Shown here piece after piece: positions 131 to 64,000 of a stretch of 64,000 nt of DNA. A program made the translations under genes and the position numbers. The notes beneath the pieces were generated by a model. That model made no database searches and was not told the DNA's origin. It saw only the letters and a list, made by a program, of their open reading frames with translations. Every line of letters starts with the position of its first letter. Positions within the stretch are counted from its first letter, which is position 1. Source of the stretch: Ophiocordyceps camponoti-saundersi (nom. inval.) (taxonomy: Eukaryota > Ascomycota > Sordariomycetes > Hypocreales > Ophiocordycipitaceae); the NCBI GenBank assembly GCA_003339415.1, contig PDHQ01000133.1, forward strand, positions 1-64,000, written 5' to 3'.

Positions 131-1334
131 CTTAATAAATAACTTATAAGCTTATAATATAGCTTAAAGTTTAAGGAAATATAAGCTATAATTAAGCTTA
201 AATAAGTATCTTAAGTAGCTAAAGTTTAAATATTAAAAATAAGGCTATAAAAGCTACTTTTAAAAAAGTAACTTATAAAGTTATTATTTAACTTTAAAAG
301 GGCTTTATTAAAGTAGTTTTTTAAATAATTTTTTAACTTAACGTAATAAATAAGCTAGTAATTTTTAGAAAAAGTTAATTTAAAATTTAAATAAAAGGAA
401 AATAACTTACTAATTATAATAAGTAAAAAGCTTATTAAAAATTTTAGAGTAAATTATAAAAAAAGAAATATTTATAGTTAAAAGAAAATTAAAAGCTAAA
501 TTCTAAGCTAAATTAATATTAAAAGCTAAACTAAGTTTAACTTAGCTTATTTTTTAAAAATATTTTATAAATTTTTTTTAATAAATTATTCTAATATAAA
601 ATTAGTAAATTAATAATAAAAAAGCTAAAAACTTACTTTTTTTAAGTTTTTTTTAGAATTTTTACTATAAGTAATTATTTTATAATTATTTTTATAATAC
701 TAGGATAAATTTAAAGCTTAAAACTTATAAACTAGAAAAATAAGCTTTTTTAAATAGCTTTTTATATAAAAAATTTAATTAATAACGCTTTTTTATAATA
801 AATAAATAAAAGAAAAAAATATTAATATAATATAAATAACTTTTACTTTTTATTTTTTATTTTCTTTAATTAAAAGAAGCTATTAAGTAAATAAGCTATA
901 CTATAAAATCTAAATTTTTAAATTCTTATCTAAGCCTAATTTAAATTCTTTTATATTATATTAAAAAATAGCTATTTTTTCCTTTTCTTTTCCTTTTTTT
1001 AAAAAGCTTAGAAATTCTTAAAAAAGTTCCTAATCTAAAAACTTAATACTATTTAATTTTATAATTATATTGCTATTATAGCTATTAAAATTAGCTAAGG
1101 TTACTTAAGAAAGCTTTTTTTAAAAAGTAATTAAAAGCGTATAATTAAAGTTAGATATTTTGCGAGAGATTAAAGAGACTAAGCTAAAAGCGGTTAGCTT
1201 TATTATATTCTTTAGGAAAAAACCTTTTTAAAAATACCCTTTTTATATTTATAGCTTATTTAGAAAAAGTTATAAAGTAAATTAAAGTTATTATATATAT
1301 AAGTTATAATATATAATTATAAAGTTAAAGAAAA
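131..1334. other. Unassigned RIP-degraded sequence
   Basis: Very AT-rich sequence with stops in every frame that I could not match to another part of the window. It probably belongs to the same element as repeat D, which follows. No motif was recognised. Confidence 0.6.
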
Positions 1335-59320: not shown

Positions 59321-61657
59321 ATGGATGACCTCATATTCAGCCGCCCCCTTTACCTACGACTCTCAGGTTTAAAAAACAGCTTGAAAGGGGATAATGACAA
59401 CTTTTGCGCGGTTGACCTCATTCTAGATGGCTTGGGCTACGGATCCGTGGACGATAGTCATCAATCAATAAGCCTTTCGAAAGGGCGGCAAAGACCACTG
59501 CTCTACTTGGACGGACAGGAATTTTCGGACGAGCCTCCAACCTTGGAAAAGGAGTCCACTTGTTGGCTGATATCAGACCTCACCACTAGATCTTCGCGCA
59601 CCTCCTCAACATCAAGGTATGCCCCCGAGAAGGTAGGGACGCAAAGCTTTTGAGGCTGTTTCGAAGTCGATAGTGATGATTCCTCAAGCACGGAATGGGA
59701 TGTACGCACCATGTATAACTGCGACAGGTTTGTTCCAGTTCGTAGTGGTTCACACACAGCCACGGAGCGCTACCACACTGTCGAGCACTCGCGAGCGCTT
59801 TCATTGTCCGAAAGATCTATTACAAGACACGGAAGAGAGTCTTGCAGTCAGTCAGTAGTGACAAGGTCCTTAAGCAGTTTAGCTCTCAACGAATCTGCTG
59901 TCGACGATGGTCGTGGCCATCTTCTTTGGCGACGATCAAATGCGCGTCTGTTCATTATGTCTGCTCTTGCGGCAAAGCCAAGTTCTCATGAGGAACTCAT
60001 GCGCTACCGTGGCCGTTTAGCACTCGCGCTTGAAATTGATCGCGTTAGTGAGATTCTCGATTTCGCTTCGACTTTGTCGGCGCCGATCTGGCCAGCCGGA
60101 GCCTGCACTCCCTGGAATAAGGGCATCGGCTGGCCGGAACCTGGGCGTTACCGTGAGTAGCCCAGGGCATGTGTGCTCTGGTGGCCGCTAATTCCGCAGC
60201 AGCGGCCTTCCATCCACATCCGAGGAGACTGCTTCCAGCTGCGCCTTTCAGGTACATATTTGTGGTCTAGCCAGCCAGGTACTCGCTGTTCGCTGATCTT
60301 GCATAGAGTGCTGGACGCTCCAAACCTGAGAGACGACTATTACTGCTCGATTTTGGCATATTCGGCCACCTCTCAGACACTTGCGGTTGGCCTAGGAAAC
60401 GTCCTCTACACCTAGTCGGAGGGACAAGGCGCCCGTACAGTGAGCGGCATCCGAAGTGACAGCATTTGGCTTACTTCAGTTGCCTTTTCGTCTTCTTCCG
60501 GTAACAGGAATATCCTCGCGGCTGGCAGGTCCGATGGCTCACTCATTCTGTCTTCAGTGAAGGACAGTTCTCCCAGATTCAAGATTCATCAGCCAAACCC
60601 GGTGACTTGCCTCAGCTGGAGACCATGCTGCGTGCCGCGCTCTTCGCGCAATCCCTGCAATCCTGGGTCAATGGTACAGACAGAAGACTTAATAGTGGGA
60701 GATGAGACAGGTACTTTGTACTACTATGTGGTCGAGTGGCCGATGAATTAGGACGTCTCACGAAATACCTGGCCCGGTTCCATGTATCTGACCGCCACAA
60801 TCTCACTTCACAGTCAACAAGTGTGTGGCCTGGCATGGTCGCCTGGCGGCCGGTTTCTTGTCTCAGGTGGAAACGACAATTTCTGCTTTCTGCTGAAGGT
60901 AGGGGAGATTCTCGGGGAGAATCGATCGGCTGATCCGTTGACGCGCCCCAAAAGGCTGGAAAAACGGTTACTTGACATTGACAAGCCTGAGAGTGACTTA
61001 GCGAAAAGATACCGGCAGATCACCGTGAATTCCGGCACGAGCAGGCTCAAGATACACAAGGAAATCAGTCTGGTCCAGGAAGGCGTCGCACACATGCGCA
61101 AATTCGGGCCCGGTTGCGAGACGCAGGCGTGGGTCCATCGAGCCGCTGTCAAAGCCATAGCTTTTTGCCCCTGGCGTGAGGGTTTAGTCGCCACCGGAGG
61201 CGGTTCTAACGACAAGTGTATCCATTTCTTTCACACGTCCTCAGGCTCTGCGCTGGCCACCATAGCTGTCGCAGCACAGGTCACTTCCTTGGTGTGGTCG
61301 ACTACCCGACGCGAGATAGCGGCCACTTTTGGCTACGCTCAACCAGAGCATTGCTATCGCGTCGCCGTCTTCAGCTGGCCGGAATGCAGGCAGATCACAG
61401 CTATCCCTTGGGCAGGAGACCTTAGGGCTCTGTCTGCTATCCCCTATCCGCGTGAAGGCGATGAGAGGAGCAGGGACAGCATTCACCTTGGTTCTGATGG
61501 CTGCATCGTGGTGGCATCTAGCGATAAGACCGTCAAGTTCCACGAGCTTTGGCCCGGGGGCGAGATGGCGACCATGACCAAATCGGGTATGCTGGCCGGA
61601 AGTGACATACTCGACGACTTGGACGGCATCATGAAAGAAGGAGACGTGATCCATTGA
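59321..61657 (+). CDS. AMA1: AMA1-like APC/C activator (Cdc20/Fizzy family, WD40), with two in-frame TAG codons
   Basis: Ama1-type proteins bind and activate the anaphase-promoting complex in meiosis and spore formation, recruiting ubiquitination substrates. Exons: 59,321-59,616, 59,674-60,152, 60,200-60,251 and 60,307-61,657, about 725 residues. Seen: a C-box DRFVPVR (59,723-59,743) in a long N-terminal region; LLPAAPFRVLDAPNLRDDYY across the third junction; then a WD40 propeller with LAVGLGNVLY, VGDETGTLYYYVVEWP, VCGLAWSPGGRFLVSGG, CPWREGLVATGGGSNDKCIHF and AATFGYAQPEH stretches, the last two typical of fungal Ama1. It ends in Ile-His where the family usually ends in Ile-Arg. In-frame TAG codons at 60,413 and 60,749 stand where Trp is expected. 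It is either a RIP-damaged pseudogene or a gene needing mRNA editing. The start ATG follows CTGCA. AMA1 over Cdc20/Cdh1 is a family judgement from memory. Confidence 0.8.
59617..59673 (+). other. Candidate intron 1 of the AMA1-like gene (57 bp)
   Basis: GTATGC donor and ATAG acceptor. The length is a multiple of three, so the frame is kept with or without splicing. Splicing removes an in-frame TGA at 59,651-59,653. I see no convincing branch site, so the alternative is that the TGA is a third nonsense mutation (for example CGA to TGA). Confidence 0.5.
60153..60199 (+). other. Intron 2 of the AMA1-like gene (47 bp)
   Basis: Consensus donor GTGAGT, branch-like GCTAAT and acceptor CCGCAG. Removing it joins WPEPGRY to PAAFHPHPRRLLP and links the frame carrying the C-box to the frame carrying the FRVLDAP motif. 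Without it the upstream frame stops at once. Confidence 0.85.
60252..60306 (+). other. Intron 3 of the AMA1-like gene (55 bp)
   Basis: Donor GTACAT, branch-like GCTGATC and acceptor GCATAG. Splicing assembles the Arg codon of the conserved PFRVLDAP motif across the junction and brings exon 3 into the frame of the WD40 domain. Confidence 0.88.
60413..60415 (+). other. In-frame TAG codon 1 (expected Trp)
   Basis: Lies in GLGNVLYT-stop-SEGQG. Family members as I recall them read LYxWSE here, so the ancestral codon was probably TGG. T precedes the A, the preferred context for fungal A-to-I editing. TGG to TAG is equally a CpA-type RIP change on the other strand. Confidence 0.8.
60749..60751 (+). 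other. In-frame TAG codon 2 (probably expected Trp)
   Basis: Lies in VVEWPMN-stop-DVSRNTWPG, between two WD40 strands in unbroken frame. Trp fits the family here, though Gln (CAG) cannot be excluded from this sequence alone. T precedes the A here as well. Confidence 0.7.
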
Positions 61658-62140: not shown

Positions 62141-63780
62141 CTTGATTAATAATATATATATATTAAGTCTTAAGATAAGAATGCCTAACCTAGTAACTAG
62201 AGAAATAGTAGTTATATAACTAAATAACGTAACCCCTTTTAACCTTCCCCCTCTAGCTAGTCTATTACTAATACTAAAGTAATAAATTAAAGTTTAAAAA
62301 TAAAAATAGATAAAAGGAAAAATAAAAAGTAAGATAATAAATTAGAGGGAAAATAAATAAAGGAAAGAAATAAGCTATAATAGCTAAGTAAATAATTAAA
62401 TCTTACTAAATCTTATTATAAATAAAGATTTTATAGATAAGGTTTTCTAGTTAAGTTTTTTAAGTATATTAATAGCGTTTAAAACTTATTTAAGAAAAGC
62501 CTAATTATTATAAAGTTTTTTCCGTAGCTTATTATTTTTTTCTTTAAGTATTTAAAGCTTATTATTAACTTTTATTATCTATTTAATAAGAGGTAATAAA
62601 TATCCTTATTTAAGGTTATTAACTTTAAAAAGAGCGTTAATTTTCTTTTATATTCTAATTATAAATACCTTTTTATTACTTCTAATAGTCGCTTAATTAG
62701 TCTAGTTATTATTATTATTATACTTTACTATATTATTAATAATAGCTTTTATTATTATAAGTTTAATTACTATTAATTTAGCTATTATTATTAGCTTAGT
62801 AGCGGTATTTTTTATAAAGATATTATTTATTTATTAGTTAATAACTTAATTATTATTATTTAAGGAAAAGTTAAAATTAAAAATAGCGATAAGAGGAGTC
62901 TTATTAACTATAAGGGTTTAAGCTAAAGCTTTTATAGTTAATATACCTTATTTTTAATAGCTTATCTATTTTATTATATAACTTTTAATTATAAATACTA
63001 CCTTAGTAGCTATTATTAGCGATAATAATAATATTATAGCTATTATTATTAGTAATAGCTTTTTTACTAATAGTTTTTATTACTTATATTTTATAGCCGC
63101 CTAATAGTTTACGTTATCTTATACCGCCTTATTAAGTAATTATTTTAATATACCTTAGCTAATATTTAATAACTTAATAAGGGCTATTATAGTTTATATA
63201 ATATTAATATTACTTAGGTTAGTTTATAGTTTATTAATCTATTTAATAGTTTTTACTAGCGCTATATATATCTTTATCTTATTACCTAACGCTAAGTATA
63301 ATATATAATAGATTTAATATAATATTACTTAATAAATTTAGTATTTAAAATATCTAATTTAAATTACTATTATATTTTTAATTAGGAGGCTATTAAGAGG
63401 GTTTTAAATATAATTATTAACCTTAAGCGTTAAGCTATAAGAATCTTATAAAAGCGTTTAAGCTAAGGTAAAAAATATAATATTAATATTATTAGTAATA
63501 AGAAATAGTTCTTTTAAGGTATATAAATATATAAGCGGGTATTATAACTTAAAAGCTTTTATTTTAGAGATTCCTTATAACTTAATAATACGAAATATAA
63601 TAATATTATTTTCTACCTTTATTTATATTATTTTAATAATTAGCTAAGCTACCTATTAGCTATTTTAAGCTTTATTTTTAAAATTACTATTAGCTAGCTT
63701 AATTATATAATTTATTATTTTCTTCTAAGATCTTAAGACCTTAATTTATTTAAGGCGGTAATCGCGAGTAAGGTAAGCGT
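62141..63780. other. Second RIP-mutated AT-rich block
   Basis: CA and TG are almost absent again. The minus strand reads as protein-like text with only TAA and TAG interruptions at about 62,410-62,700 (Gln- and Lys-rich, coiled-coil-like) and 62,880-63,760. No diagnostic motif was found, so the element class is unknown. There is no partner elsewhere in the window. Confidence 0.6.
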
Positions 63781-64000
63781 ATACCTAGTTAAATTTTACC
63801 TTGGAACTACCTATATAGGGGCCGCTATATTAGCTAGCTTATTAGTATCTGCTAGTAGAGGTAAAGGGTGCTCGTCCGTTAGCTCCCCTTTAGCACTTTG
63901 CCCTAGCCTACGGAAAATAAAGTTCGTATCTTACGACTAAAGGAAGTAATTATATAGTATTCTTATAAGTAGGATATATTTATCTAGGCGGATAGGACGC
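63781..64000. other. GC-richer, less mutated end of the window
   Basis: Some CA and TG sites persist here and GC content rises. It may be the start of an LTR or another less-affected element cut by the window edge. No gene was seen. Confidence 0.4.

What the first reader, a model, noticed from the sequence alone, without database searches (positions are those of the whole stretch)
60413..60751. Two in-frame TAG codons at expected Trp positions in an AMA1-like gene: candidate A-to-I mRNA editing that would restore the protein
Seen: once three introns are removed, the AMA1-like frame runs from the start codon to the end of the WD40 propeller with only two stops, both TAG and both preceded by T. 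The first stands in LYT-stop-SEGQG and the second in EWPMN-stop-DVSRNTWPG; Trp is the residue I expect at each. Known: in Fusarium and Neurospora, sexual-stage A-to-I editing changes UAG to UGG and rescues genes with premature stops. I recall an AMA1 orthologue in Fusarium graminearum being among them, but cannot verify that here. Inference: the gene may be translated in full only during sexual development. Rival explanation: TGG to TAG is also what RIP leaking from the flanking repeats would make.
Basis: partly seen in the sequence, partly recalled or inferred. Interest (0 to 1): 0.92.

Follow-up and report, generated by a model that had tools for sequence, protein, structure and literature searches.

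The report
Meiosis gene stops, likely RNA-edited
A fungal gene of a family that helps run meiosis carries two internal "stop" signals exactly where relatives have the amino acid tryptophan, and relatives show stops at the same kind of places, which fits a known fungal process that rewrites such stops in the RNA during sexual reproduction; the RNA itself was not seen.

Summary
An AMA1-like gene (59321-61657, +, three short introns) reads through 725 codons with only two internal stops, both TAG, at codons 312 (60413-60415) and 424 (60749-60751). Relatives have Trp there: 114 of 120 aligned proteins at site 1 (6 gaps), 99 of 120 at site 2 (18 gaps, 2 Glu, 1 Ser).

RIP decay fits badly: no RIP signature in the gene; identity to the nearest full-length relative is 70, 72 and 72% before, between and after the stops.

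Stops recur in relatives. Gene models of Ophiocordyceps polyrhachis-furcata and O. unilateralis end exactly before site 1; 28 proteins end exactly before site 2; 26 models skip site 2 by an apparent false intron. Of 60 truncated relatives whose end could be placed, 58 end at a Trp position (28 others could not be placed). The same genome has a kinase with TGG-TAG matching the published PUK1 editing site, plus Tad2-, Tad3- and Ame1-like genes.

Best reading: sexual-stage A-to-I editing restores UGG, already published for AMA1 in Fusarium. Not shown: edited RNA, or the codon letters in relatives. Against it: the otherwise invariant C-terminal Arg is His. A known kind; these sites and their spread were not found in the papers searched.

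The parts
59321..59616 (+). exon 1 of the AMA1-like gene (ATG at 59321)
   Evidence: open frame and splice sites
59674..60152 (+). exon 2; holds DRFVPVR, which resembles the C-box of APC/C activators (motif recalled)
   Evidence: frame continuity
60200..60251 (+). exon 3 (a second in-frame acceptor lies 3 nt downstream)
   Evidence: frame continuity
60307..61657 (+). exon 4, WD40 propeller, terminal TGA 61655-61657
   Evidence: CDC20/Fizzy WD40 family PF24807; alignment
60413..60415 (+). site 1: TAG at codon 312, Trp in relatives; candidate edited base 60414
   Evidence: models of O. polyrhachis-furcata and O. unilateralis end at the preceding residue
60749..60751 (+). site 2: TAG at codon 424, Trp in relatives; candidate edited base 60750
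   Evidence: 28 proteins end at the preceding residue; 26 models skip it
61652..61654 (+). last codon CAT (His) where relatives have Arg; loss of the Ile-Arg tail
   Evidence: Arg in 118 of 118 aligned relatives with a residue there, 2 of 120 gapped
59617..59673 (+). intron 1, 57 nt
60153..60199 (+). intron 2, 47 nt
60252..60306 (+). intron 3, 55 nt

Best explanation
This is the single AMA1-like gene (meiotic APC/C activator family) of an Ophiocordyceps-like fungus. Its two in-frame TAG codons are most likely changed to UGG (Trp) in the mRNA by the Sordariomycete Tad2-Tad3-Ame1 A-to-I editing machinery during sexual development. Unedited RNA would give a 311-residue fragment that ends near the start of the WD40 propeller; only RNA edited at both sites gives the whole propeller. 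Shown here: the two TAGs, Trp in relatives, conservation after the stops, truncation of relatives at the same codons, and the presence of machinery-like genes and of a PUK1-type stop in the genome. Inferred: that this RNA is edited, in which tissue, how completely, and that the fragment is inactive.
For: Both stops are TAG at Trp positions. Identity to O. camponoti-leonardi 83/118, 80/111 and 217/301 before, between and after the stops. The window departs at 6 of 155 highly conserved columns, the O. camponoti-leonardi protein at 12 of 154. Gene not RIP-like: index -0.61 against +1.51 over 1-58900. Two Ophiocordyceps models end exactly before site 1; 28 proteins end exactly before site 2 (3 near-identical pairs among them). 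58 of 60 placeable truncated relatives end at a Trp position. 26 models resume just after codon 424, 22 at the next codon, which needs AG at the end of codon 424 if the intron ends there. On the tree the 54 stop or false-intron rows all lie in the group holding the named Sordariomycetes, where this editing is reported to originate (PMC11087585, passages). Tad2-like, Tad3-like, DUF726 and MAT1-1-1 loci present. PUK1-type TGG TAG in the genome.
Against: No RNA data. The stop codons of relatives were seen only as protein ends, so TAG is not shown there. The C-terminal Arg, invariant in 118 of 118 relatives, is His here, so even the restored protein may not be normal. The nearest full-length relative has Trp at site 1 and Glu at site 2, and O. 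sinensis and O. australis have Trp at both, so the stops are not general in the genus. Predicted RNA folds do not discriminate: site 1 is paired and site 2 in a hairpin loop in the best fold, and 105 of 280 exon-4 adenosines are in hairpin loops. Site 1 context is only 4 of 6. The matched parts of SPO22 and of two DNA methylase loci have no stops, although orthologues of SPO22 and RID are edited in F. graminearum.
Confidence: 0.86

Rival explanations
1. RIP leaking from the flanking repeats, or ordinary G-to-A mutation, made both stops, and the gene is a young pseudogene.
For: TGG to TAG is in the CpA context that RIP prefers. The flanks are strongly RIP-like. The last codon also looks like a G-to-A change, Arg to His. 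Five of the six departures at conserved columns can be made by one G-to-A change.
Against: The gene shows no RIP signature. Conservation does not drop after the stops. The same codons are stops in other species. Mutation alone should also hit Gln and CGA codons (10 CAG, 6 CAA, 9 CGA against 17 TGG left in this gene), but 58 of 60 placed ends in relatives are at Trp.
Confidence: 0.09
2. The stops are removed by alternative splicing: the segment before codon 424 is a real, optional intron whose 3' end is the TAG, as reported for FgBUD14 where splicing and editing coexist.
For: 26 gene models of relatives have such an intron; 14 of the 26 share the left edge EDLL or EDLI. FgBUD14 precedent (PMC11156358, section 6).
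Against: The other 12 left edges differ. The excised part is conserved propeller sequence present in the Trp-bearing relatives. It would not remove site 1. PMC4817773 reports that such introns were annotation errors in 69 genes plus PUK1.
Confidence: 0.03
3. UAG is read as an amino acid at translation here, by general reassignment or programmed readthrough.
For: Both stops are UAG and the frame is conserved after them.
Against: Internal TAG is rare elsewhere: of 146 WD40-family matches, 10 have any internal stop and 3 of these a TAG, one being this gene; of 142 kinase matches 8 have a TAG, and 7 of these look like introns read through or begin at a splice site. TAG is the first in-frame stop after 5 of 18 other matched segments (some may lie in introns).
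Confidence: 0.02

Closest known systems
FgAMA1 (FGRRES_10728), Fusarium graminearum: AMA1 orthologue with premature-stop-correction editing
   Same: Same gene family; in-frame UAG changed to UGG in perithecia (PMC4817773, PMC11156358).
   Different: The position of the Fusarium stop was not found in the papers I could read. Fusarium gene models break at Trp330 and the F. graminearum model keeps Trp at both window sites, so I infer a different codon there. The window gene has two stops.
PUK1 (F. graminearum UAGUAG, N. crassa UAGUGG, F. verticillioides UGGUAG)
   Same: Editable stops at Trp codons, position varying between species, false introns in gene models (PMC4817773).
   Different: Kinase; its two stops are adjacent, whereas those of the window gene are 112 codons apart. 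The window's genome has its own PUK1-like locus with TGG TAG.
CHE1 of Fusarium and the OLD-ZAO pairs of Neurospora
   Same: Conserved premature stop corrected by A-to-I editing, with truncated, late-starting or false-intron gene models in relatives (PMC11169179, PMC12754623, passages).
   Different: Zinc-finger gene edited in hyphae, or antiviral genes edited by OLD deaminases. No OTT_1508 deaminase match was found here, but that search rang in no control genome either.

Membership tests
AMA1 orthologue (by sequence) | CDC20/Fizzy WD40 propeller, closest to proteins called AMA1 | tested here: met
   PF24807 E 7.7e-40 on the piece after site 2; best hits include proteins named AMA1, e.g. P0002, P0015; Cdc20/Cdh1-type genes are separate
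Working APC/C activator (Cdc20/Cdh1/Ama1) | C-terminal Ile-Arg tail (role recalled) | tested here: not met
   window ends Ile-His; Arg in 118 of 118 relatives with a residue; the family's best match on contig C104 ends IIR. Hence filed as an AMA1 orthologue by sequence, not as a proven activator
Working APC/C activator (Cdc20/Cdh1/Ama1) | meiosis-stage expression and APC/C activation | not testable with these tools
   no expression data
Premature-stop-correction (PSC) edited genes of Sordariomycetes | in-frame UAG where Trp is expected | tested here: met
Premature-stop-correction (PSC) edited genes of Sordariomycetes | frame conserved downstream of the stop | tested here: met
   217/301 identical to O. 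camponoti-leonardi after site 2
Premature-stop-correction (PSC) edited genes of Sordariomycetes | stop shared with relatives | tested here: met
   protein ends at the same residue: 2 for site 1, 28 for site 2; the stop codon letters of relatives were not seen
Premature-stop-correction (PSC) edited genes of Sordariomycetes | A-to-G in sexual-stage RNA | not testable with these tools
   no RNA reads
Premature-stop-correction (PSC) edited genes of Sordariomycetes | editing machinery Tad2-Tad3-Ame1 in the genome | tested here: met
   Tad2-like, Tad3-like and three DUF726 loci; candidate Ame1 on C8 has Ile-Val at the Met-Val spacing (placed by spacing only)
Premature-stop-correction (PSC) edited genes of Sordariomycetes | preferred flanks and hairpin loop | tested here: inconclusive
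   flanks 4 of 6 and 5 of 6; folds not diagnostic
RIP-mutated pseudogene | loss of CpA/TpG and excess of TpA | tested here: not met
   gene: substrate index 1.27, product index 0.66; 1-58900: 0.05 and 1.56

The most novel reading that the evidence does not exclude
AMA1 is a repeated target for editable stops: across Sordariomycetes, stops have appeared at up to seven different Trp codons (312, 330, 380, 424, 551, 606, 644), have been kept, moved and lost, and have left scars at codon 424 (Glu, Gln, Tyr: one step from TAG, two from TGG). The meiotic APC/C activator would then have been put under RNA-editing control many times, as a lock that keeps it off outside sexual development, and the lineage of this window has doubled the lock. 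The His at the Arg tail could even be a further, missense site (weak context, 3 of 6).
Probability: 0.45. Interest if true: 0.8.

Novelty: new member of a known kind. Interest (0 to 1): 0.64.

Why it matters
Why fungi keep stops that must be edited out, rather than encode Trp, is debated (neutral accumulation or adaptive switch; passages of PMC12754623). A gene in which such stops seem to recur at different codons in many lineages, while the rest of the protein stays conserved, makes this testable: gain and loss of the stop can be mapped on a species tree and set against life cycle. It also warns that AMA1 models in public fungal genomes are often cut or gapped, and that a stop inside a fungal gene is not by itself a sign of a pseudogene.

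Tried and rejected
Intron 1 was first placed at an acceptor that breaks the frame; the acceptor ending at 59673 keeps it. A hairpin-loop argument was dropped as uninformative. The position of the FgAMA1 stop was not found: the primary paper and two further papers were not held, and the passages seen in PMC11156358, PMC9600606, PMC4817773, PMC12582100, PMC11050156 and PMC9499528 do not give it. A scan of viral contigs for DNA of relatives gave none; no eukaryotic genome collection was on hand, so the relatives' codons could not be read. SPO22 and two DNA methylase loci show no stop in their matched parts. All 8 kinase matches with a TAG, of 142, were translated: 7 look like introns read through or begin at a splice site, one (L058) has the TAG inside an unbroken conserved motif; first read some loci on the wrong strand, mended.

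Not found in print: ten searches of the held library listed no paper on editing of AMA1 in Ophiocordyceps or on recurrent AMA1 stops. In two papers listed the passages seen hold nothing on it. The library lacks most subscription papers, among them the FgAMA1 paper.

Full report
What is there. The region holds one gene on the + strand in a roughly 3-kb stretch of normal base composition (about 59.1-62.1 kb) inside AT-rich DNA with strongly RIP-like dinucleotide ratios. With introns of 57, 47 and 55 nt removed, 725 codons run from ATG 59321 to TGA 61655-61657 with two internal stops, TAG at 60413 and TAG at 60749. The pieces match the CDC20/Fizzy WD40 family. The best protein hit is from Ophiocordyceps camponoti-leonardi (411 hits at E <= 0.001, best 120 listed). 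I take the window as an Ophiocordyceps-like fungus; the species was not identified. The own assembly (45.7 Mb, 733 contigs) holds this sequence once; the family search found two matches over the cut-off on other contigs, without stops.

Is Trp expected? In an alignment of the window protein (X at both stops) with all 120 listed hits, site 1 is W in 114 and a gap in 6; site 2 is W in 99, a gap in 18, E in 2 and S in 1.

Is the gene decaying? Among 155 columns where at least 95% of relatives agree, the window departs at 6: the two stops, E425D, Gly to Ser at 166 and 167, and the last residue, Arg to His; five of the six can come from one G-to-A change. The O. camponoti-leonardi protein departs at 12 of 154; the median relative departs at 0.65%, so both are above typical. 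Identity to O. camponoti-leonardi is 83/118 for residues 190-311, 80/111 for 313-423 and 217/301 for 425-725: no drop after the stops. RIP indices are normal in the gene and extreme in the flanks.

Do others stop at the same codons? The protein collection holds ORFs and gene models cut at stop codons, so the last residue of a truncated relative can mark a stop. A search with the 147 residues from the start of exon 4 to site 2, open only to proteins of 81-257 aa, returned 56; 21 end exactly at the residue before site 2. A search with residues 1-423 (223 hits, best 120 listed) added models of O. polyrhachis-furcata BCC 54312 (P0177) and O. unilateralis (P0200), both ending in GLGNVLYT, exactly before site 1, and 7 more proteins ending exactly before site 2. 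The 28 site-2 ends include three near-identical pairs.

I then took all 241 proteins of the three searches. 152 have a natural C-terminus and over 400 aa, and one shorter protein also has it. Of the other 88, the last 15 residues could be placed on the full-length set for 60 and not for 28. Of the 60, 54 end right before a Trp and 4 more at codon 424 where the best reference has Glu: 58 of 60. The other two lie on contigs of 508 and 1021 bases. Positions: 312 two, 330 one, 380 fifteen, 424 twenty-eight, 551 two, 606 two, 644 eight. The rows are related, so these are not 58 independent events, and the query ended at site 2, which favours ORFs of that length though not an exact end at Trp. No control family was tallied. 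Stops made by mutation alone should also hit Gln and Arg CGA codons; the window CDS has 10 CAG, 6 CAA, 9 CGA and 17 TGG.

The gaps. In 26 models the sequence breaks off upstream and resumes right after codon 424, at the next residue in 22 and one later in 4 (counted from the list; total 26). An intron that ends right before the next codon needs AG as the last two bases of codon 424, which fits TAG and not TGG. Left edges: EDLL or EDLI in 14, scattered in 12. PMC4817773 and PMC11169179 (passages) describe truncation and such false introns as effects of edited stops. Several Fusarium models break at Trp330 and resume at the following Leu, which is my guess for the published FgAMA1 site.

Where in the tree. 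A quick tree of residues 277-404 (224 rows, 130 columns, many forks unresolved) puts all 54 stop or false-intron rows, the window included, in a 183-row group (support 97) that holds the named Sordariomycetes, with 92 Trp rows; outside it, among Botrytis, Sclerotinia, Lachnellula, Pseudogymnoascus and others, are 32 Trp rows and no stop at this codon (Fisher p 3e-6, not corrected for kinship). At least 13 changes between Trp and stop are needed, 20 with the false introns. Tad2-Tad3-Ame1 editing is reported to originate in Sordariomycetes (PMC11087585, passages). Against this neatness, two proteins that end at Trp644 (P0223, P0226) lie outside the group. Non-Trp residues at codon 424 inside the group are Glu 2, Gln 3, Tyr 1 and Ser 2; the first three kinds are one step from TAG and two from TGG. 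The two Glu rows, P0001 and P0003, are grouped with the window (support 90), which suggests an older TAG there; inference.

Can this fungus edit? The assembly has a Tad2-like locus, a Tad3-like one, three DUF726 loci, of which the C8 copy has Ile-Val where FgAme1 has Met-Val, placed by spacing from the catalytic Ser (PMC11087585), and a MAT1-1-1 alpha box. Contig C273 carries a kinase frame read RCDW*SIGIILYE, TGG TAG at 964-966 (minus strand), inside an otherwise continuous conserved motif. PUK1 of F. verticillioides is UGGUAG, edited in perithecia, and PUK1's stops lie in the ninth kinase subdomain (PMC4817773, passages). I take this locus as the PUK1 orthologue from motif and stop; no tree was made. 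Flanking bases fit the published preferences at 4 of 6 (site 1) and 5 of 6 (site 2) positions; predicted folds do not discriminate (preferences from PMC9600606, section 6).

Verdict. Restorative UAG-to-UGG editing at both sites is the best account (0.86). It is a known kind of event in a gene already known for it in Fusarium. New, as far as the held library shows, are the two sites, the double stop, the sharing of site 1 with two ant-parasitic Ophiocordyceps (their hosts recalled), the recurrence at codon 424, and the near-exclusive truncation of AMA1 proteins at Trp positions. Open: the missing RNA, the unread codons of relatives, and the lost Arg at the C-terminus.

Noticed in passing
L058 (G000:C273:964-966, minus strand): Kinase frame with TGG TAG at the Trp-Trp of the subdomain IX motif, matching the edited UGGUAG described for PUK1 of F. 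verticillioides.
   Followed up: partly
window 61652-61654: Last codon is CAT (His) where 118 of 118 relatives with a residue there have Arg; a single G-to-A change, cause unknown.
   Followed up: partly
P0154, P0156-P0167, P0169-P0171: Sixteen proteins end exactly before Trp380 (..VACVS or ..VACLS); most fall in one clade with Coniella lustricola, suggesting another recurrent stop.
   Followed up: partly
P0030, P0179, P0206, P0221, P0223, P0225, P0226, P0236: Eight proteins end exactly before Trp644 (..AAIP or ..AAVP), including Fusarium and Trichoderma models and two rows outside the Sordariomycete group.
   Followed up: no
alignment column of codon 330 (WLTS): Besides W in 179 of 223 rows this column has His 33 and Tyr 10, and Fusarium models break here; possibly traces of an older stop.
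   Followed up: no
G000:C8:89043-90101, L018: Candidate Ame1 (DUF726) with Ile-Val where the Fusarium editing activator has Met-Val and its ancestors Lys-Asn.
   Followed up: partly
window 1-58900 and 62200-64000; L059: AT-rich (about 0.2 GC), RIP-like DNA around an isolated gene island; the next stretch of normal composition lies at contig 37 about 64.0-65.5 kb.
   Followed up: no
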